DNA from: Trachythela sp. YZ-2020
Lineage: Eukaryota; Cnidaria; Anthozoa; Malacalcyonacea; Clavulariidae
Assembly: GCA_016169945.1 (NCBI GenBank)
Contig: JADLSH010000358.1
Span: 5,551,001-5,615,000, forward strand
Length of the DNA: 64,000 nt
Direction of reading: 5' to 3'
Under the pieces are notes generated by a model. The model was not told where the DNA came from. It saw nothing but the letters and a program-made list of their open reading frames with translations, and searched no databases. Both the position numbers and the translations under genes were made by a program. Position 1 is the first letter of the stretch, and each line of letters begins with the position of its first letter. Positions 13,565 to 48,000 of the stretch are shown one piece after another.

Positions 13565-13790
13565 GCCACAATACAGACAATGTTGGTCAGGTCATACGAA
13601 ATACAGACACTGATGGTCAGGTCATACGAAATACAGACAATGTTGGTCAGGTCATACGAAATACAGACAATGTTGGTCAGGTCATACGAGATACAGACAA
13701 TGTTGGTCAAGTCATACGAAATACAGACAATGTTGGTCAAGTAATACGAAATACAGACAATGTTTGTCAAGTCATACGAAATACAGAGCT
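13565..13790. repeat. 30-bp minisatellite, about 7-8 copies
   Basis: The unit ATACAGACAATGTTGGTCAG plus GTCATACGAA is repeated head to tail with few changes. It is open on the minus strand as a 10-residue peptide repeat (ISYDLTNIVC), but only because the unit length is a multiple of three. Confidence 0.9.
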
Positions 13791-13903
13791 TTAGAGCTTG
13801 TTGTAGAGAGTTTGTTGTATATATATACAAGGAGCCAGGGGGTGGGGTGTGTCAGTATCCATTATAGCTCTATAAGATGAAGAACTTACCAGAACAGCAT
13901 TGA

Positions 13904-14904
<1,001 letters not shown>

Positions 14905-24000: not shown

Positions 24001-27000
24001 CGGACCTGCCTCGTATCCAGGCACTTTGGTTTGCTACTTTTGCCACTGCAGTATAACGCCCACGCAGCAGATTAGTAAACCATGGCGTCCGAGTACGAGG
24101 CAGACAACGGGCAGTAAAGTTCAGGTCCCGATTGTTTTTAATTGAAATCTTGATTATGAACACCTGTAAACAACGGACCACGGACACCATCCTGATTACA
24201 AACAGACTATATGCATGCAAGTAAATACAATCTCTATATAACGGGCAGTTATAAAAATCCGTATATAAAGAACAAACTACAAAATATGCATGAAAACTGT
24301 ATCGCACTGCCCGTACCTGTTCATACGCGTGTATAATGTAGAACCTGCAAATTTGAAAACATATACTCAAAAAGCTACGAAAACACTTTGCTATCACCGT
24401 ATCTTGCACGCCTCTCTCGTCAAGCTACTGTCGCAAAACCTCTAACCAACGGACAGTCCCTTCGGCCCCAAGGTGTCTGTTATATGGAGCTTTCACTGTA
24501 ACAGAATGAACCAATATTACGGCAAACAGTTACTAGTACGTACCACTGCTTTCATCTGTTCGTTGTTTGTTAACGATGAATCCACAAAGGAAGTCTGCTG
24601 AGTATATGCACTTGTGATGTCAGAATCTATGGCACTATAAAGACAATAAATTGAAGTGTTACTACAGTACCACTGATATAAGCTATAATACAAAGCTCAC
24701 TTCCCTTGTGGTCGTATGAGCACTCTGGCCCCAAGACACTTCACGCATGTCTGGATGCGCATGTGTCTGAGTATTGTACCACATGCGCTTGGTGAGAGCA
24801 AGAATGTTCATCTATATTCAGTTGAATTCAGGCGTGCTTGGTTTGGCATCTTGTTAAAAACACGCAAAAAACACAAGTTTTTTGGTTCTCTGATTTCAAA
24901 TTTTTGGGGGGTTCTGTATTATTAAAAGACAAAGACTTTTATCAGGATTCTTAATCATGGAAATGGGGATGTTGTAATCTTGCAATCTGATTGGTCAAAA
25001 ATAGTGCGATAAAATTCCCAAATCGCACTATTTTGAGCTTTGCTCGCATCATCTTGAGTATTGATCGCATCATTTTTAAACCAATCAGATTGAAGCTCTG
25101 CACCACAACAACCACTCAGATTGAATGATAGAATTCAACTAGCCAATCAATTTAAAGAAAAATGTGATGTGGCAAATGACCAAATCTGTTCACCATAAAT
25201 TGTCAATACTCTAGACTGCATTACTGCAGTTTTTTTCATAAAAATCAACATAAAGGCGAGTCAAACTTAAAAGAATATCAAATAAATTTTCACAAATAAT
25301 ACTGGCCAAATTATCAACAAAATTTTGAATGAAACATAGTCAAAATGTCAACAAAAACAAATTTCATTTGAGCAACAGCAAAAACTGAACAAAAAGCCAC
25401 AAGGTATTAAAATATGGAATGATCAATCGTAGTGTCGATGTTTGAATGCACAAAATCACAAGAAACGTTTATCAATTTACACGTAAAGTCTACGATATCT
25501 TTAAACTTACTTTTGCGGTCTTTATTTCTAAAAATCCACTCACATTTTGCTTGTTTAATACTGAGTCTTTTTATTAAATTAAACTATTTTTGTCAATTTG
25601 TGAAATTACAATTCATGTTGTTGCTATTCTACGGCATTTTAGGGAGTATCGTGGGTGTGTCAATTGTAAACAAAGACTAATAAAATACCGCTTCCGGTTT
25701 AAAAAAAGTATTTAGATTTCAAAATGAATATAATAAAGTAGAAATTGAACTTCGTGTCGTGCAATTTTGGTCTGAAATCAAACTTGTGATTACAAATCGC
25801 ACTCCCGCTTCGCGGTCGTGCGATTTTGTAACCACGCGTTTGATTTCAGACCAAATTGCACTCCACTCAGTTCTTGTTGTATTTTTTCCAATGCTTGATA
25901 CTTCTGAAGAACTAATGATTAAGGTCATAATCATGGCCCTTAGCAATGAAATTAGTTTTTACATAACAGACGTGTCACATTCACCCTGACAAATGTTTGA
26001 AAAGTAATAAAACGAATATTGTATGGTCATTACGATTATATAATATGACCATTGGTCTAACTGCATACCGGAAAATCATTACTATAAAAACTAAAGTATG
26101 AGTATGTTACACAATAACATATACTGACCTTATTGGGGTATCTGGTCTCTCTTGGTCTGGCTCTAATGATGGTGGTCTATAAAAATATATTGTTTAATGA
26201 AGAAAACCTATAGGTGAATAAGTGCTCGACCACAGTCTAAGGTCCTCCAGTCTAAGGTCCTCCAGTCTAGCCTCCCCAGTGTGCGATAATTCGCGTACTT
26301 ACGCACTCGAGGTACGTCCATATTACTGTAGGGTCTGGTACGATGATGGGAACGAAGTAGAAAATCCTAACCTTCGTCGTTCCCACCATGCATCATTATT
26401 TTTTCGACATCATTCATGGACTGGGTACGAGTCAGCTACTATGTACTGTAAGTTAAAAGTGGGCGGACTTGAAACAAAAAATATCTTACTTTCCCGATCT
26501 ACAGTTCAAGTAACCGGATGTAAGTAGTAGTGTAGGTACCGTTCGACCCCCTTTTTTGAGGGTGTGCGAGGGTGTGCGAGAGTTTTGAGGGTGTGCAACA
26601 TCATTAACATAATTATGTATTGACGTCATAATGATATACAAGGTGAGTTTGGGCGAAACAGTCATTATGTTGAGTTTTGAGGGTGTGCAACATCATTAAC
26701 ATAATTATGTATTGACGTCATAATGATATGCAAGGCAAGTTTGGGCAAAACAGTCATTAAGCTGAGCTCAGCATATTTTGTGTGCAAAAATATATGGGTT
26801 TGTTGTCGCGAGATTTATAAACTCCTTCAATCTCGTATCTAGTGAAGTATTTCTTTCTGAGTCGACCAATACTAATAAGTTTTTAAGCGTTTATTTAGTA
26901 AAGCCTGTACAAGCGAGATTTACAAACATTAAAGCGTTAGAAACATAAATATTTTGATGCTAAGTTAAACTAAAGACACAATAGCTTAACTCATTAAGGG

Positions 27001-30000
27001 ATTAAGTCAAAAGGCTTGTTTGGGCGAAACAATCATTAAACTGAACCATCACAATAGCTAGACCTTTCCTATATATTTTGCCAAGCGTTGTGTTCCAAAC
27101 ACAGTCCGTTTCGACAAAGAGTAAATATATTCTCGTATCTAATATCACCTTAAACAAGACGGCTTAGACAACTAATATAGCGACGCTTAACCTAGTAAAA
27201 TATTATGCGAAATAATAACAAGTAGAAATATAGCGTTCTAAAACGAGAAAAGTCTTATAGTCTAAGAGAGGTCTAAGATCTTATAGAGCAATATAAATAT
27301 ATGTTTGCCAAGCGATTGTTAAAGGGATTTAAACCTTACCGAGTTTCAAGCGTTTTAGATGTAGCAGTGATTTTTAAGCGAGATACAAACATTGTATGCA
27401 AACACAATTCTATGCGGTTTGTAAGTCATTTGTAAATCGTTAACAGTGATTTGAATAAATTTAGAATATATCATAGGACGGGAAAATATTGTACAATGTA
27501 CACACACAGAATTCGTTTTAAAACATATTTATTGCTTAAAATTTCTTTTACAAAGTGTCTTAAATGTCATCTTGGGAATATTCACTGTCCGAGTCATTTT
27601 CGTCGCTACTTTCATCATTCCTTATCCACCTTGTTGGTCTTCTATCCTCATCGTCTATATTGAAACACAGTCTTTTCCTTTTGGTGGATGGTATATTACT
27701 GCGTGAATTTTTTCGTCTCTTATTTCCTCGGCCTGATTGTCGTAGTAACGTCTTTGCTCCCTGTTCGGCAAAGTCTTTGACAACTTCCCGTCCACGAGAC
27801 TTTATTGATTTTGATACATTTTTCCCATCGAGTACATCTTGACCAACTTCCGTTGCTGCTTGTAACGCTCTTTTACCAACTGTTTTAGCGCCTTGTTTGA
27901 ATAAAGGTATTGCAAATCTAGCAAGGCTTCTGAAAATACCCCGATTCCATATCCCTCTGCATTCTTGCTCCATGAAATCCTTCAATACTACCACCACGCT
28001 GATTTCTTGTGTAATGTTCAGTTAGTAGCTTTACGTCAGGATAAGTACACCCTCATCTTTTATGTGTCTTGGTCGGCTTCCAATGTTCAACTGATGGGAG
28101 GATGCTTCACTTGTGTATTTTATTTGAATCATAAAAGTGACTTCTATTTGTACGGACGTCTAATATTTCATCACAATAACAATGTGAACAACACGCAATC
28201 GTATGTGTGAAATCATCTTTGTTAAGTGTACAATCACAAATCATACAGTGACATCCGGTAAAACTGGAATAAAAATCCGTCCATGTACAGATAGGGCATG
28301 TACCCAATTGACATATCTGTAAACAATTTTCACAATTGTTACATTTTATATCTTCAGACGAATCCTCAATATCTTCATCTTGCCGTGACTCCATCCGTGC
28401 TAGCATTGCGAGGACCCGCCCGTTGGTGATAAGACTTTTATCAATTTCCAATGCCGCAAGACCTTTGAGAAATATACTCAATCCATAAGGTTCTGGAATA
28501 TATGGATGAAAAGGCCTCGTGCAATATTTTAGAATGTTTACAATATCAGTTCCACGTATATCCTGTCCTCTGTAGACGATCTCTCCTTTTGTATTCCACG
28601 TCAAAATGTCCGTAGATGTGAGAATAGAGTGAAGGATTTCTTCGGCGCCATAACTATTTTCATTGTCAAGATAATGAAGAATGTCTTGAAGTCGCCACTG
28701 TTCAGAGATGATCTTTTGGTGCTATCCATGGTTGGAATGATGGATATGAATTTAATTTTGATCATTTTATACCAATTCTGCAAGTCCTTCTAAGATTGGA
28801 GCCAGTACCAATCCTAGAAAACCATTTCCATGCTGAACAAGTATCTTCCTTTTTGTTTTAACACTTTTATTTTTGTTAGTCAGATGAATAATATCGTGTT
28901 CAAAAGGTCTAAGTTTATCCATTGTGTGTTTAGGAAGTGCGAGGTTCATAAAACTTTTCACACAATTACATAGAAACCGAATCTGTTCATGAGATGTAGA
29001 TCTCAACAGAGCTTGTTGTTGAGTTGGATAAGAAGTACATAGGAGCTCTATAAACGATCTGTGCTTGGGAAGGTTAGTCATATCTGCTCGAAGGTCAACA
29101 ACGTAATGAAGACCTGATTGAAAAAACGTGCATATATATGAAGATATGGTTCTTACATCTTAGAGCTCGATATGGAGCTAAGCTCGCTCGATATGGAGCT
29201 AAGCTCGCTCGATATGGAGCTAAGCTCGCTCGATATGGAGCTAAGCTCGCTCGATATGGAGCTAAGCTCGCTCGGCTCGGAGCTAAGCTCGCTCGGCTCG
29301 GAGCTAAGCTCGCTCGATATGGAGCTAAGCTCGCTCGATTTGGAGCTAAGCTCGCTCGGCTCGGAGCTAAGCTCGCTCGGCTCGGAGCTAAGCTCGCTCG
29401 GCTCGGAGCTAAGCTCGCTCGATATGGAGCTAAGCTCGCTCGATTTGGAGCTAAGCTCGATTTGGAGCTAAGCTCGATTTGGAGCTAAGCTCGCTCGATA
29501 TGGAGCTAAGCTCGCTCGATTTGGAGCTAAGCTCGCTCGATATGGAGCTAAGCTCGCTCGGCTCGGAGGTATGTTTATAAGTCATAAAAGTTTAAGTGGG
29601 AATTCATTATCTATCAGTCCTTCGTAGAGTAAACATGTCTCATCTGTGTCATATCTGTGGAAAATATTTCTCTAAGTCGTTCAATCTACATCGACATCGA
29701 AGGGCGGTCCATGGTCAAAAACCAACAGAGAATGCTCGCATATTAGTTGATGGATCTACAGTTCTGCAACATCCCTTTACTTGTATCGTAGCAGGATGTA
29801 CTCAAAGTGGCAAAACTGTATGGGTGAAAAGTCTATTGGAGAATGCCCAGAAAACCATAAGTCCACCTCCTCAGCGTATCATCTGGTGTTATGGTCAATG
29901 GCAGCCATCCTATTTTGATATGAGAACAATGCCTGGAATAGAATTCAATGAAGGAATACCTGAAGATATTGACAAGGTAGATTACCTAGATGTTTCTCAA

Positions 30001-33000
30001 CGCAATTTGATCGTACTAGATGATCTCATGGCACAATCTGGCAAGGATAAACGTATAGCTGATCTTTTCACAAAAGGGAGTCATCACAGAAATTTGTCCG
30101 TCATCTACATTGTCCAAAATATATTTCATCAAGGCAAAGAAATGAGAAATATTAGTCTCAACGCTCATTATATCGTGTTGTTTAAGTCACCGAGAGATAA
30201 GCAACAAATCTCTATGCTTGCAAGACAAATTAATCCTGGCAAAGTCGGAGAGTTTATGAGAAGTTATGAAGACGCTACGAGCCGTCCTCATGGGTATTTA
30301 ATGTTGGATTTAAAACCTACAACGGATGATCAACAACGACTCAAAACAAATGTATTGCCAGGCGAGGTCTTAGTCGAATATGTACGGAAACAGTCTTATC
30401 GTCAACCACCCCTTCTAAATGCGATGTATAACACCGAGCAGCGAATGAAAGAGATCATTAAAGCACCACAGCTTACCCCGGATGAAAAAAGCAAGCTGTA
30501 TTCTGACCAACTAAATCGATTTCTAACTTTTAAAAACAAGATATCCCAGATATTTTAAAACCCCAGATATCGTTGAACCACCAACCGCTCCTGAACCTAT
30601 GGAGATAACACAACCAACCACTCCTAGATCTATCGAGATGACACAACCTGTGCCTGCTACTCCTAAACCTGGCTTTCTCACACCACCACCAACACAAGGA
30701 GAACGACCCAAACTCAAACACAGCTTTTTCCACAATTGGGTAGACTCGGCTGATTGGAGACCTAAAGATTTAGCAATGATGACTCCAGAGCAACGAGAAG
30801 GTTACGAACAAAGACATCACTTTGTAAAAGAAATTTTAAGCAATAAATATGTTTTAAAACGAATTCTGTGTGTGTACATTGTACAATATTTTCCCGTCCT
30901 ATGATATATTCTAAATTTATTCAAATCACTGTTAACGATTTACAAATGACTTACAAACCGCATAGAATTGTGTTTGCATACAATGTTTGTATCTCGCTTA
31001 AAAATCACTGCTACATCTAAAACGCTTGAAACTCGGTAAGGTTTAAATCCCTTTAACAATCGCTTGGCAAACATATATTTATATTGCTCTATAAGATCTT
31101 AGACCTCTCTTAGACTATAAGACTTTTCTCGTTTTAGAACGCTATATTTCTACTTGTTATTATTTCGCATAATATTTTACTAGGTTAAGCGTCGCTATAT
31201 TAGTTGTCTAAGCCGTCTTGTTTAAGGTGATATTAGATACGAGAATATATTTACTCTTTGTTGAAACGGACTGTGTTTGGAACACAACGCTTGGCAAAAT
31301 ATATAGGAAAGGTCTAGCTATTGTGATGGTTCAGTTTAATGATTGTTTCGCCCAAACAAGCCTTTTGACTTAATCCCTTAATGAGTTAAGCTATTGTGTC
31401 TTTAGTTTAACTTAGCATCAAAATATTTATGTTTCTAACGCTTTAATGTTTGTAAATCTCGCTTGTACAGGCTTTACTAAATAAACGCTTAAAAACTTAT
31501 TAGTATTGGTCGACTCAGAAAGAAATACTTCACTAGATACGAGATTGAAGGAGTTTATAAATCTCGCGACAACAAACCCATATATTTTTGCACACAAAAT
31601 ATGCTGAGCTCAGCTTAATGACTGTTTTGCCCAAACTTGCCTTGCATATCATTATGACGTCAATACATAATTATGTTAATGATGTTGCACACCCTCAAAA
31701 CTCAACATAATGACTGTTTCGCCCAAACTCACCTTGCATATCATTATGACGTCAATACATAATTATGTTAATGATGTTGCACACCCTCAAAACTCTCGCA
31801 CACCCTCGCACACCCTCAAAAAAGGGGCTCGAACGGTACCTCTACTACTACTGATGTATATCTACACTTACGAGTATCTCAACGGCTTTTACCAAAACGT
31901 AAATTTATTTAGCTTCGCCAACTAGGGCAGGGTCACCACAACAGCATATGCCAATTACTGTGGGCCCTTTTACCTAACACACCCTGTCAACTTTCCCTGT
32001 GGGAGAAAACCGGAGTACCCGGAGAAAACCCACGACTTTCGGCAGAGCGTTCACTTTACTCTTTTCACTTGAGGACTGGGTTCGAGTCGCATTGAGAAAG
32101 TTCTCACTGAGACTTGAACCCGCGGCCTTAGAGGTGAAAGGCAAGTGCGCTAACCACTTCGCCACCGAAGAACTACTGTACTACAATATTAGAAAAGCAT
32201 CGTTGGTGATTACAATAAACGAGGTTAAACCACGGTTAATAGAACTAGATGGTTAGGCTAGCTGGACCACGTGACAAATATGTTATTGTCCTCTTTTTAT
32301 TAACGTCACGTGACGAGATAAGGGGGCGCTTGTTATGGAAAGTGTTGACAGATATATTGTCGACGTCGTGTGCGTATCAAATATCTTCGACATTGTTTGA
32401 CCTAAATTACAAACTTCACAAGTAATATATTGTAGCCATGCCTTAAAGAGATAGTTTTGAGGTATGGTCGGTCACAATTGCGCGTTGTATGGCTGCTCAA
32501 CTAGCAGAACACACGAAGGACGTTCGCTCTTCAAGATACCCGTTGTTGGCGCTGCAGACGGAGAAGAAACGGCAGCATTAAAGAAAACAGCTCGTGAAGA
32601 ATGGCTTCGTCTGCTGTTGAGAACAAGACAAGTCACAGCTGATTTGAGAAAACGAATTGAGGCGAACAACATCTTCTTTTGCGACCTTCATTTTAAGCCC
32701 GAATGTATCATTTCGCATAAGTAATTATAATATTATTCGTTTGCGTTTTGTCTAAATATTATGTATTATTCTGCTCGTCATGGGTCACTGCTCACATACG
32801 CGTCATTAATTGTAAATGATAATATAGAGTTGTTTTATTTTTTAAGATCCCAAAAGAAAGGTTCTTGCCACTGGTAGCGTTCCTACGGAGAACTTGCCAA
32901 CAAAGAGTCACGAAGTTGAGACTAAAAAGCGTCGCGTTTTAGTGAGATCTTCGACTGATGACGAGCCTAGCACATCAAAGGGCATATCAACCAGTCTAAA

Positions 33001-45000: not shown

Positions 45001-48000
45001 AGCAAATACTGGTGTATGTACCACAGAATACCACGGTGCCACAGAATACCAGTCTTATTTATTGATCTTATAAAATTTGGAGGAAACATACTATATACTT
45101 TATTTTTGTGAATATATATTAGTTTTAGTTGACATATAAAAAACAAAAAATGAATATTTTCTTTAAAATTCTAAAATTCTTTAAAATAATCAGGATTAAC
45201 AAAAAATAACATTGTATGTTTTTGATCCTTTTTTCCCGCATAATGCCTGTAAATTCGAAAGTTTAAAAATAAGTTTGCAAACCAGTATAATTTATGTTGA
45301 TCACGACTTTTTCTATGCAACACAACATTATTACTATACAGGAATCACACCGAGGAATCAATTTTACCATTGAAAAACTGAATTTTTCAAAATTATTGAC
45401 AAACGTGGTATTCGTTGGTTACACCACTGGTATGCTGTACTGATTTTAGTATTTACCTTTCACTAAATTAAGTTAGCAATATACTACAGTATTATCACAC
45501 AACATGACACACCAAATCCTGGTACAATTTGATAAACCGTTGCTTATTTATCTCTGCACTGGTATTCTGTGGTACATTAGAGTTTATTCCACAGAATGTT
45601 CAATTAAAAAATAATAAGAAGTCACATTATATATATTTGACAAAATATATGGGGGGTTACGACCACTTAGTGAGTTCGATGTTCTAGGGGATCGGGTTTA
45701 TGAGGGCTCTATGGAGATTATTACTCCAATGGCATTCCCGAAGTATGGGGGACTATTTCCCCAGGACAACAACAATAGGGCTGTAATGAAGGTTATAATT
45801 GGTTCACTTCACCCCGATCTCTATCTCCCACAATAATTTTGTGTGCGATCTTATATCTATCTGGTATTTTTCATCTATAATATGCTTGGATCATGAAACC
45901 AAAAAAACAACACTCTGTCCAAGCTCGCTCTAAAGTGAAAAATCAAATACTGTCATGACTTACTATTTTGGTTGACAGCTTCTGTGGCTGCCGGTGTTGC
46001 ACTGGCTGGTGAACAATTACTTTGCACAGCTTTGCCAAGGCTCGAAGGACTTGGTGGCATTAGCTCAGAAAAATTACACGAATACATGACCTTGATTATA
46101 TTCCATGTCTGTGCCTCATGACGAAGTCCAAGCTTACCACATTGCTGAAAAATAATTAAAATAAATTATCAGCTTCTCTCTGAGACCTCCAATGGCAAAA
46201 AATAATTTATGGAAAAACTGCAAACTACCCTGGGGAAATGTTGGCTGCAGCTACAAGCTAGACATAATAAATATTTGCATACAAAATGAAATTACCGTAT
46301 TAAATGGCGTCACCAAATTGTACTTTACATTTACAGGTTATTCCATCTGATGGTAATATAATATCATGCATAATAAATAAACAGCACATTCTATTAATGA
46401 AGCCTATCATACCTTAGCATTGTGGTCGCACAGTTCGCCAAAAGGTCGTCCACTAAGAAGATAATTTTTGGCCAATATCTTGAAACGCTCCAGGTCCTAG
46501 AAATATTGAGAACGAATGATATTATTGATATGAAAAAACTAAACCCCAGCTGTGCGAGCGTAATACACCCTTTCGATAATTACGTCACGAATACTTCCTT
46601 GGCCTGGGAGCCTCGCTTTCATGAATCAAGAAGAAATGCAATTCGCTCACGATTCATGAGAATGAGGCTCCCAGGCCAAGGAGAGATTTGTGACGTAATT
46701 ATCGAAAGGGTGTATTGGGGTATTTTATTGTTCGTGCATAATCATTAATTGATATTAGGGCCATTTATACGGGACAAAATAAGACGCGTCTTATGTAAGA
46801 CGCGAACTTGTCGTATAAAAGGCACAAAATTCTTGTTCGCGTCTTATCTAAGTCGCGTCTTGGATAAGCCACAAAAACCCTCGTATCTTTTCGCGTACTT
46901 TTCGCGTACTTTTCGCGTACTTTTCGCGACTTACATAAGACAAATGTAGAAATATTCTAGCTACGTATGCGTGAAACTCTGTGCGTGAAAACTGGAACAA
47001 TGGAAAAAGGCTCTAGCTCAAATTATTAAAAATTAAGATGCGAATGATTTATACAATACCTTCGCGTCGTATGTAAGACGCGCTCGTATAGATAGTAAAG
47101 TTCGCGTCTTACATAAGACGCGTCTTATGTAAGACGCGTCTTATTTTGTCCCGTATAAATGGCCCTCATTTCGGAATTTCCATATATTGGATTACCAGAA
47201 TGTTGTGGAAGTGCAGATACAATTATATAGCTCCAAAAACTTGTATTTGCTGTATTGATTTCTGAAGACGTACATTACGACTTACATTTTGACTGTCAGC
47301 AGTAAAACTATACAGCGTGCTAGTAACTGCAGTGACTTCCTCAACCTTGGCTGGCTGCTGAATACGGATCGCACCCAGTGAAGCAGTCAAATGCGCATTA
47401 AATTTCCTGAAATGAAAACGAGAATTACACCATTCCGAGAACGTTAGAGTATACCTTAAAGACTATTGAAGTTTACGACGCTTTTGATACATTTAAGGAA
47501 AACATCGATGATAAAAGTTGCACATGTACTATGAATAATTCTGCCAAGTCTGGACTTAAGATCACTACTAATGAAGATCCTAGACTGGAGTGTCGAAACG
47601 TTTGGTCGTGAATTTGATCTGTTCGTGGTTTGGGTTCGTAGTAGTGCGAAAAGAGTAGCGAGCAATTTTTATCGAAATTGAACCAAAATTAAATCAATTT
47701 GTTTTTGGCCTATGGCCATTAGCTCCACAAATTTTCATATTCAAATATTTGATATTTATTGAGTTATTGTACTCAGAGACAAACAAACAAACAAACAAAC
47801 AAACAAACAAACAAACAAACAAACAAACAAACAAACAAACAAACAAACAAACAAACAAACAAACAAACAAACAAACAAACAAACAAACAAACAAGCAAGC
47901 AAACAAACAAACAAACAAACAAACACACACACACACACACACACATGTACTTGCGGAGATAACAAAAAAACATACTGTTTCGGTTTCGGCTCAGGTGGAG

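What the first reader, a model, noticed from the sequence alone, without database searches (positions are those of the whole stretch)
26523..31852. A 5.3 kb miniature Polinton with packaging-type genes but no replication or integration genes
Seen: 6-bp GATGTA duplication, two 1035-bp inverted repeats, a packaging-type ATPase and three small proteins of Polinton/adintovirus style in a divergent layout. Known: Polintons of 15-20 kb carry protein-primed polymerase, integrase, protease and capsid genes. None of these fits in the 3.26 kb between the repeats. Inference: this is a defective or satellite-like derivative that keeps assembly genes rather than replication genes, the reverse of what a simple MITE keeps. 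If the same layout recurs in the genome, it would be a distinct, packaging-oriented parasite of Polintons.
Basis: partly seen in the sequence, partly recalled or inferred. Interest (0 to 1): 0.9.

Follow-up and report, generated by a model that had tools for sequence, protein, structure and literature searches.

The report
Packaging-gene satellite of animal Polintons
An animal genome holds many copies of a roughly 5 kb mobile element that shares its ends with a larger virus-like Polinton but carries its own DNA-packaging motor, whose zinc finger appears matched to a repeat array in the element, which looks like a way to steal another virus's particles.

Summary
The window holds a 5,330-bp element (26523-31852) with 1,035-bp inverted arms, a 6-bp duplication and four genes, three of them broken in this copy. 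The layout recurs: 78 of 129 listed ATPase loci have a listed p104 within 5 kb, 77 divergently; 13 of 14 two-ended coding copies have a perfect 6-bp duplication. A 14-kb Polinton-type element in the same genome carries the same end motif, an integrase and its own ATPase; two other copies of that family share over 1 kb of arm with some satellites. The satellite is not a simple deletion of it. Unexpected: in 27 of 27 copies read, the ATPase's zinc-finger type goes with the type of the central tandem array (position -1 K with GAG, N with GAC, T with GAT; two copies fit less cleanly). Four of five elements read that lack the packaging genes carry several array types side by side; 41 loci hold such an array junction. 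Best reading: a packaging satellite whose ATPase reads its own array, with gene-less elements riding on both. The pairing is shown by sequence; binding, packaging and helper dependence are inferred.

The parts
26517..26522 (.). target-site duplication GATGTA (left)
26523..27557 (+). left terminal inverted repeat, 1,035 nt, starts AGTAGTAGTGTAGG; holds a 92-bp direct repeat (26580-26766)
27560..27997 (-). remnant of a basic protein gene (145 aa from a GTG here, 166 aa in most other copies); homologue of a helper 150-aa protein (57% aa; window 27791-28060 is 91.6% at the DNA level)
28107..28604 (-). remnant of a Cys-rich protein gene (165 aa from a TTG here, 219 aa in most other copies); N-terminal part resembles a helper 239-aa protein (26%)
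28767..29081 (-). p104, intact 104-aa gene; homologue of a helper 107-aa protein (27%)
29165..29560 (.). central tandem array, 21-bp unit, 19 copies, GAG-rich (type A); proposed recognition signal of the ATPase finger
29635..29715 (+). C2H2 zinc finger at the ATPase N-terminus (residues 1-27), type A
29635..30558 (+). A32/FtsK-type packaging ATPase, 307 aa here, about 447 aa in copies with an open frame; frame broken after residue 303
30563..30814 (+). rest of the ATPase C-terminal region, in another frame; the last stretch before the right arm is missing compared with other copies
30818..31852 (-). right terminal inverted repeat
31853..31858 (.). target-site duplication GATGTA (right)

Best explanation
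The element is one decayed copy of a family of packaging satellites of a Polinton-type virus in an animal genome. Shown by sequence: the family shares its ends with a longer Polinton-type lineage that has an integrase and its own, finger-less ATPase; it lacks an integrase and any recognisable polymerase or capsid gene; its genes have pN/pS below 1; and its packaging ATPase carries an N-terminal zinc finger whose type goes with the type of the tandem array beside it. Inferred: the helper's polymerase and integrase replicate and insert the satellite through the shared ends; the satellite's ATPase binds its own array through the finger and loads satellite DNA in preference to helper DNA into helper-made capsids. 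Different satellites hold different finger-array pairs, and gene-less elements with several array types use whichever ATPase is present.
For: Recurrence: 78 of 129 listed ATPase loci have a listed p104 within 5 kb, 77 of 78 divergent. Separate insertions: 13 of 14 two-ended coding copies, and 3 of 4 two-ended copies without the packaging genes, have perfect 6-bp duplications. Separation: 1 of 129 compact ATPases within 20 kb of a helper integrase (18.8 kb), against 35 of 50 helper ATPases within 8 kb of one. Shared ends: the motif stands at both ends of the 14-kb element; a helper arm end matches satellites L025 and L027 at 96.4-96.5% over 1,427 and 1,421 nt. Selection: pooled pN/pS 0.45, 0.26, 0.27, 0.34 for ATPase 1-303, p104, p165, p145 (15, 17, 16, 16 copies). 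Finger and array types agree in 27 of 27 copies, four types; in the seven type B and C copies measured, finger residues 1-27 are 10-13 identical to the window, while residues 43-303 are 252-259 of 260-261 identical. Elements without the packaging genes carry several array types in 4 of 5 read; the A|C array junction has 41 clusters, 0 within 6 kb of a listed compact ATPase (129) or p104 (150). Known parallel: adenovirus packaging repeats are bound by the packaging ATPase IVa2 (PMC5033970, passages).
Against: No binding, particle, expression or helper-dependence data. Finger and array are neighbours, so they may be inherited as one block; the effective sample is four types, not 27 copies. Type C (N at -1, array GAC) is not what the published table predicts (DNR for GAC). 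In type D, GAA is also frequent, and in L048 (66 nt of array) GAA 12.1 exceeds GAT 9.1 per 100 nt. L047 (type B array) has A, not T, at -1; L044 and L045 have lost a zinc ligand and L046 is frame-broken. The helper's polymerase is supported only weakly (best BLASTP E 9e-6 over 51 aa to another Polinton's PolB; no useful Pfam, NCBIfam or PDB match), and its capsid genes not at all beyond place and general look. The PF03175 search does not find this helper lineage (1 of 50 helper ATPases near a listed PolB), so '0 of 129 compact ATPases near a listed PolB' says little. Array order is the same in the three four-array elements read, so they may go back to one event. The array also lies in a divergent promoter region.
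Confidence: 0.58

Rival explanations
1. The finger does read the array, but for transcription: the ATPase represses or activates the divergent promoters beside its own gene. Packaging is not involved.
For: The array lies between the p104 and ATPase starts in the 19 copies, and between two divergent ATPases in L042 and L048. IVa2 of adenovirus is also a transcription activator (passages).
Against: Elements without these genes keep several array types (4 of 5 read; 41 junction clusters).
Confidence: 0.21
2. Passive non-autonomous Polintons: an old rearranged derivative is copied by the helper because of its ends; its proteins no longer matter, and finger and array are simply inherited together.
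For: Finger and array are adjacent; many copies are broken, including the window copy; 41 junction clusters spread without the packaging genes nearby.
Against: pN/pS below 1 in the ATPase and the three small genes (stop-free copies only, so slightly biased); finger and array differ together in a nearly constant background in seven copies; the -1 residue fits the published table for types A, B and D.
Confidence: 0.15
3. The compact elements are one segment of a cooperative multipartite virus, or a host-favoured defence element that limits the Polinton, as mavirus does for a giant virus (recalled).
For: Recent exchange between the two: 96% shared arms and 274 nt of the basic-protein gene at 91.6%.
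Against: The longer element has its own ATPase and homologues of p104 and the basic protein, so it should not need the compact element's genes. Effects on helper or host are untested.
Confidence: 0.06

Closest known systems
Polintons / Mavericks / adintoviruses
   Same: 6-bp duplication, long inverted arms starting AG (that start is recalled as a Polinton feature), A32-type ATPase, homologues of three further genes of a Polinton-type element
   Different: no integrase and no recognisable polymerase, protease or capsid gene; about 5-6 kb instead of 14 kb; ATPase with zinc finger and neighbouring array; rearranged gene order
Phage satellites that redirect packaging (SaPI/PICI, cf-PICI, P4)
   Same: use a helper's particles and bring their own packaging protein and signal (recalled; listing only)
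   Different: animal host genome; the motor ATPase itself carries the DNA reader; inverted arms shared with the helper; no sequence relation tested
Virophages and transpovirons
   Same: small DNA parasites of larger viruses; transpovirons are linear molecules parasitising mimivirids (PMC11071308, passages)
   Different: virophages have their own capsid genes and protist hosts (recalled); no finger-array pairing known to me
Adenovirus packaging ATPase IVa2 and packaging domain
   Same: packaging ATPase that binds repeats in the genome it packages (PMC5033970, passages)
   Different: repeats near one genome end; DNA-binding domain not described as a zinc finger in the passages seen; not a satellite

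Membership tests
Polinton/Maverick | 6-bp target-site duplication and long terminal inverted repeats | tested here: met
Polinton/Maverick | protein-primed DNA polymerase B and retrovirus-like integrase | tested here: not met
   no such gene between the arms; helper integrase within 20 kb of 1 of 129 compact ATPases
Polinton/Maverick | capsid proteins and protease | tested here: not met
   four genes between the arms, none matched to such a family in Pfam or PHROGs; relatives too distant for these tools cannot be excluded
Polinton/Maverick | A32/FtsK-type packaging ATPase | tested here: met
   Pfam Pox_A32 31 bits, cut-off 22.8; 43% to helper ATPase
simple internal-deletion derivative or MITE of the longer element | internal sequence collinear with the longer element | tested here: not met
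   gene order and domain arrangement differ; DNA match to the 9.9 kb read is limited to 274 nt and 41 nt
packaging-redirecting satellite | lacks replication and capsid genes, shares cis ends with a helper in the same host | tested here: met
   the helper's own polymerase and capsid genes are only weakly identified
packaging-redirecting satellite | own packaging specificity (protein plus signal) | tested here: inconclusive
   finger and array types agree in 27 of 27 copies; binding and packaging not tested
packaging-redirecting satellite | transferred in helper-made particles | not testable with these tools
   needs particle DNA
virophage | own double jelly-roll capsid gene | tested here: not met
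   no such gene found between the arms by frames and Pfam

The most novel reading that the evidence does not exclude
A three-tier chain of parasites inside one animal genome: a full Polinton virus; packaging satellites that steal its particles with a motor whose zinc finger reads a private repeat array, with at least four interchangeable finger-array pairs maintained; and gene-less elements that collect several arrays so that they can be packaged by any satellite's motor. This would be a packaging lock-and-key system with a one-residue switch (K, T or N at finger position -1 choosing GAG, GAT or GAC).
Probability: 0.47. Interest if true: 0.96.

Novelty: new variant of a known kind. Interest (0 to 1): 0.92.

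Why it matters
Satellites that redirect packaging are well known for phages. I know of none for a DNA virus of animals. Seven of my ten paper searches held Polinton, Maverick or adintovirus terms and listed none; I saw titles and abstract starts only, not all papers found (20 of 26, 20 of 50, 8 of 24), and most subscription papers are not in that library. Maverick particles had not been observed as of one abstract (PMC8097293, listing); a satellite whose packaging ATPase shows pN/pS below 1 argues that packaging happens. The finger-array pairs turn packaging specificity into a simple binding test with built-in controls, and the gene-less elements with several arrays are a natural experiment on what a packaging signal is.

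Tried and rejected
One-off deletion: rejected, because the layout recurs. Simple internal deletion of the helper: rejected on gene order and divergence. The PolB lineage found with Pfam DNA_pol_B_2 (C241) as helper: rejected for that copy, because the stretch read shares neither the arms nor these genes. Association of finger type with the terminal end blocks: looked at by eye in a few copies, none seen. A segment test for recombination between ATPase and other genes gave 0 of 28 pairs below 1e-4, but its length filter dropped copies with a diverged finger part; the per-residue count replaced it. In one search full-length type A copies have 245-260 of 261 identical; L027 shows 160 of 259 because its frame is broken; type D copies were not in it, and their ATPases are 76-78% identical to the window's. 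Relatives in viral contigs: none matched the patterns. Helper capsid frames: no useful match in Pfam, NCBIfam or PDB sequences, and none to the C241 element's 311-aa protein. The D|A junction search did not complete. Dropped before counting: L028 (fragment, no array), L018 (other half of L017). Three of 27 finger assignments (L019, L025, L046) were made by eye because a substitution or frame break defeated the script's pattern.
Full report
What is in the window. A 5,330-bp element lies at 26523-31852, flanked by GATGTA (26517-26522 and 31853-31858). Its arms are 1,035 nt each and differ at 5 positions, three of them within the first 25 bases. Between the arms lie four genes: on the minus strand a basic protein (145 aa here), a Cys-rich protein (165 aa here) and p104; on the plus strand an A32/FtsK-type ATPase with a C2H2 finger at its N-terminus. 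Between p104 and the ATPase stands a 21-bp tandem array of 19 units. Compared with other copies the window copy is damaged: only p104 is whole; the ATPase loses its frame after residue 303, and the other two lose theirs near the 5' end.

The host and the copies. The window is part of a 578-Mb assembly in 396 contigs. The arm gave 54 listed matches, with 40 of 2,328 candidates scored, so counts are lower bounds. I fetched 20 stretches by arm match and 5 by ATPase match. Of the 20, 14 (13 elements, L017 and L018 being two parts of one) carry the four-gene core or parts of it; L028 is a remnant; L010, L011, L020, L021 and L022 have the arms without these genes. All five ATPase-chosen stretches carry the core, L035 only in part. 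Genome-wide, 129 of 1,833 candidate ATPase places were scored and 150 of 469 for p104. Of the 129 ATPases, 78 have a listed p104 within 5 kb, 77 in divergent arrangement. Eighteen loci had both ends recognised; 16 of 18 have an identical 6-bp duplication (13 of 14 coding, 3 of 4 without the packaging genes; L011 and L019 fail). These are many separate insertions of a compact unit.

Selection. Among copies without stops in the compared stretch, pooled pN/pS is 0.45 for ATPase residues 1-303 (15 copies), 0.26 for p104 (17), 0.27 for the Cys-rich protein (16) and 0.34 for the basic protein (16); the ATPase tail gives 0.70 (16 copies) with almost no divergence. Requiring stop-free copies biases slightly towards intact genes, and pairs share branches, so these are indications, not exact values.

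The helper. The end motif AGTAGTARTRKAN8TCRASCCNNWTTTT has 425 forward and 412 reverse exact matches and none for the reversed control; about the first hundred places were listed. One pair of ends 14.0 kb apart (C30:5421618-5435579) encloses a Polinton-type element. I read 9.9 kb of it: three polymerase-type frames, a 212-aa ATPase (Pox_A32, 23.4 bits, cut-off 22.8), a 107-aa p104 homologue, a 239-aa protein, a protease-like protein (Peptidase_C5, 17.5 bits, below its cut-off of 21.3), two capsid-type frames, a 150-aa homologue of the basic protein, a 259-aa protein and an integrase (rve, 54.4 bits, cut-off 32.6). Only ATPase and integrase rest on a family match above cut-off. The polymerase name rests on motifs that I recall and on weak BLASTP similarity to the C241 PolB (E 9e-6 over 51 aa, E 0.002 over 197 aa); Pfam, NCBIfam and PDB sequences gave nothing useful. 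The capsid names rest on place and general look alone.

Of 50 helper ATPase loci that I listed, 35 have a helper integrase within 8 kb, mostly near 5 kb; of 129 compact ATPases one lies 18.8 kb from such an integrase and none within 20 kb of a listed PF03175 polymerase. That last count says little, since only 1 of 50 helper ATPases lies near a listed PF03175 polymerase either. On the contigs covered by the listed end motifs, integrase lies 1.7-1.8 kb inside an end motif at four of six contigs with helper genes (C30, C43, C5, C52; not C2, C22; read by eye).

Shared ends and exchange. An arm end of another helper copy (C5) matches the arms of satellites L025 and L027 at 96.4-96.5% over 1,427 and 1,421 nt, L026 at 96.9% over 745 nt and L034 at 94.4-94.5% over about 1,055 nt; that of a third copy (C43) matches the same four at 93.6-95.5% over 535 to 1,212 nt. 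In the lines printed the window's own arms match at 86-90% over 89-177 nt. L025-L027 have one helper-type arm and one window-type arm. The basic-protein gene shares 274 nt at 91.6% with the helper copy read, while otherwise only 41 nt of the ATPase gene match at the DNA level. So satellites and helper exchange pieces. Gene order speaks against a simple deletion: in the helper, ATPase, p107 and p239 run together and p150 opposes them; in the satellite, p104 and the Cys-rich gene run against the ATPase. A stretch of the helper's 239-aa protein corresponds to the satellite ATPase's C-terminal part and another to the Cys-rich protein (34% over 44 aa, 26% over 66 aa).

The finger and the array. I read finger and array in 27 coding copies (19, 3, 5): the window, 13 chosen by arm match, 5 by ATPase match and 8 mostly more diverged ones. 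Type A (12 copies, the window among them): finger positions -1, 3, 6 are K, N, R; GAG 11.8-15.9 per 100 nt of array on both strands, GAT 2.6-5.0, GAC at most 0.5. Type B (8) and type D (2): T, N, R, save L047 with A at -1; GAT 9.1-15.3, GAG at most 3.0, GAC at most 1.9; B and D have different repeat units; D also has GAA 9.4 and 12.1, so that in L048 GAA exceeds GAT. Type C (5): N, N, R; GAC 10.8-14.4, GAT at most 1.8, GAG at most 1.1. Finger type and array type agree in 27 of 27. L044 and L045 have lost a zinc ligand and L046 is frame-broken. In one array per type the triplet ranks 2, 2, 2 and 3 among 32 strand-merged triplets. In the seven type B and C copies measured the finger is 10-13 of 27 residues identical to the window's, while residues 43-303 are 252-259 of 260-261 identical. 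The finger matches solved DNA-binding C2H2 proteins (2i13, E 1.6e-9). A table in PMC5260074 pairs GAT with TNR (two of three fingers), GAG with RNR, GAC with DNR (passage); Lys reads G and Asn reads A (PMC12264921, passages). Types A, B and D fit; type C does not follow from the code.

Relatives. Of 120 listed database homologues of the ATPase, 46 have a readable finger: -1 is N in 20, T in 14, K in 11, R in 1; position 3 is N in 45 and position 6 is R in 44. The best-scoring homologue is 86% identical over 99% of the query and the best p104 homologue 66%, so these are likely other species (inferred). Three longest-contig lengths occur in both lists (474,766, 1,032,840 and 2,510,143), which hints that ATPase and p104 share contigs there. 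The helper stretch read has no comparable array.

Elements without the packaging genes. L010, L011 and L021 carry arrays of types B, D, A and C side by side, in inverted repetition; L022 has B and D; L020, which has a RING-like frame, has a B remnant. The A|C junction occurs 68 times (56 exact, 12 with one mismatch; control 0) in 41 clusters. None of the 41 is within 6 kb of a listed compact ATPase (129) or p104 (150); one is near a helper ATPase fragment, out of 28 helper places checked; and all 7 clusters on contigs C2-C59 have at least one end motif within 6 kb, four of them both. An array that served only as promoter would have no reason to persist there; an array that is a recognition signal would. 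The constant order suggests one origin followed by amplification.

How it most likely works. Shared arms let the helper's polymerase and integrase copy and insert the satellite (inferred). The satellite's ATPase recognises its own array through the finger and feeds satellite DNA into helper capsids (inferred; adenovirus IVa2, which binds packaging repeats, is the model, PMC5033970 passages). p104 and the basic protein have helper homologues and are probably particle-associated (inferred). Gene-less elements would profit from any satellite ATPase. Membership: it works like a packaging-redirecting satellite; it is not a Polinton in the full sense, since no polymerase, integrase, protease or capsid gene was found in it.

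Limits. Only one host genome was available, unnamed; related species could be judged only from single proteins. I read 27 coding copies, five elements without the packaging genes and one helper copy in part. No experiment has been done.

Noticed in passing
one search list; window 26523-26556 and 31819-31852: The outermost 34 bases of these elements look like interchangeable short blocks (for example GTGTA/ATATA/GTAGA, then GGTACC/GGGGCC/CAGGCC/GGTGGT). Both ends of one element often carry the same set (12 of 18 pairs identical), but sets differ between elements; the window's two ends differ at three of the first 25 bases.
   Followed up: partly
L015 (C37), L042 (C195), L048 (C273:2709400-2710160): Apparent palindromic doubles, by eye: two divergent ATPase genes around one array, in L015 with p104 on both sides.
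   Followed up: no
L020 (C49:986936-993807): 6.9-kb element with the same ends, two 2.9-kb inverted halves at 99.8%, with a RING-like 207-aa frame and a 208-aa acidic frame instead of the packaging genes.
   Followed up: no
L036, L030, L037 (C241:1881000-1902000): A different Polinton lineage with a 1,236-aa PolB (Pfam DNA_pol_B_2) and an rve integrase, without these arms or an ATPase like the satellite's in the stretch read.
   Followed up: partly
L017 and L018 (C255): A satellite copy whose Cys-rich gene is split by an insertion of several kb.
   Followed up: no
L019 left end (C235): The left end abuts a type A array unit and has no matching duplication, suggesting nested insertion or rearrangement.
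   Followed up: no
window 13570-14025 and 47779-47945: Long simple tandem repeats (30-bp unit, ACA, ACAA) unrelated to the element.
   Followed up: no
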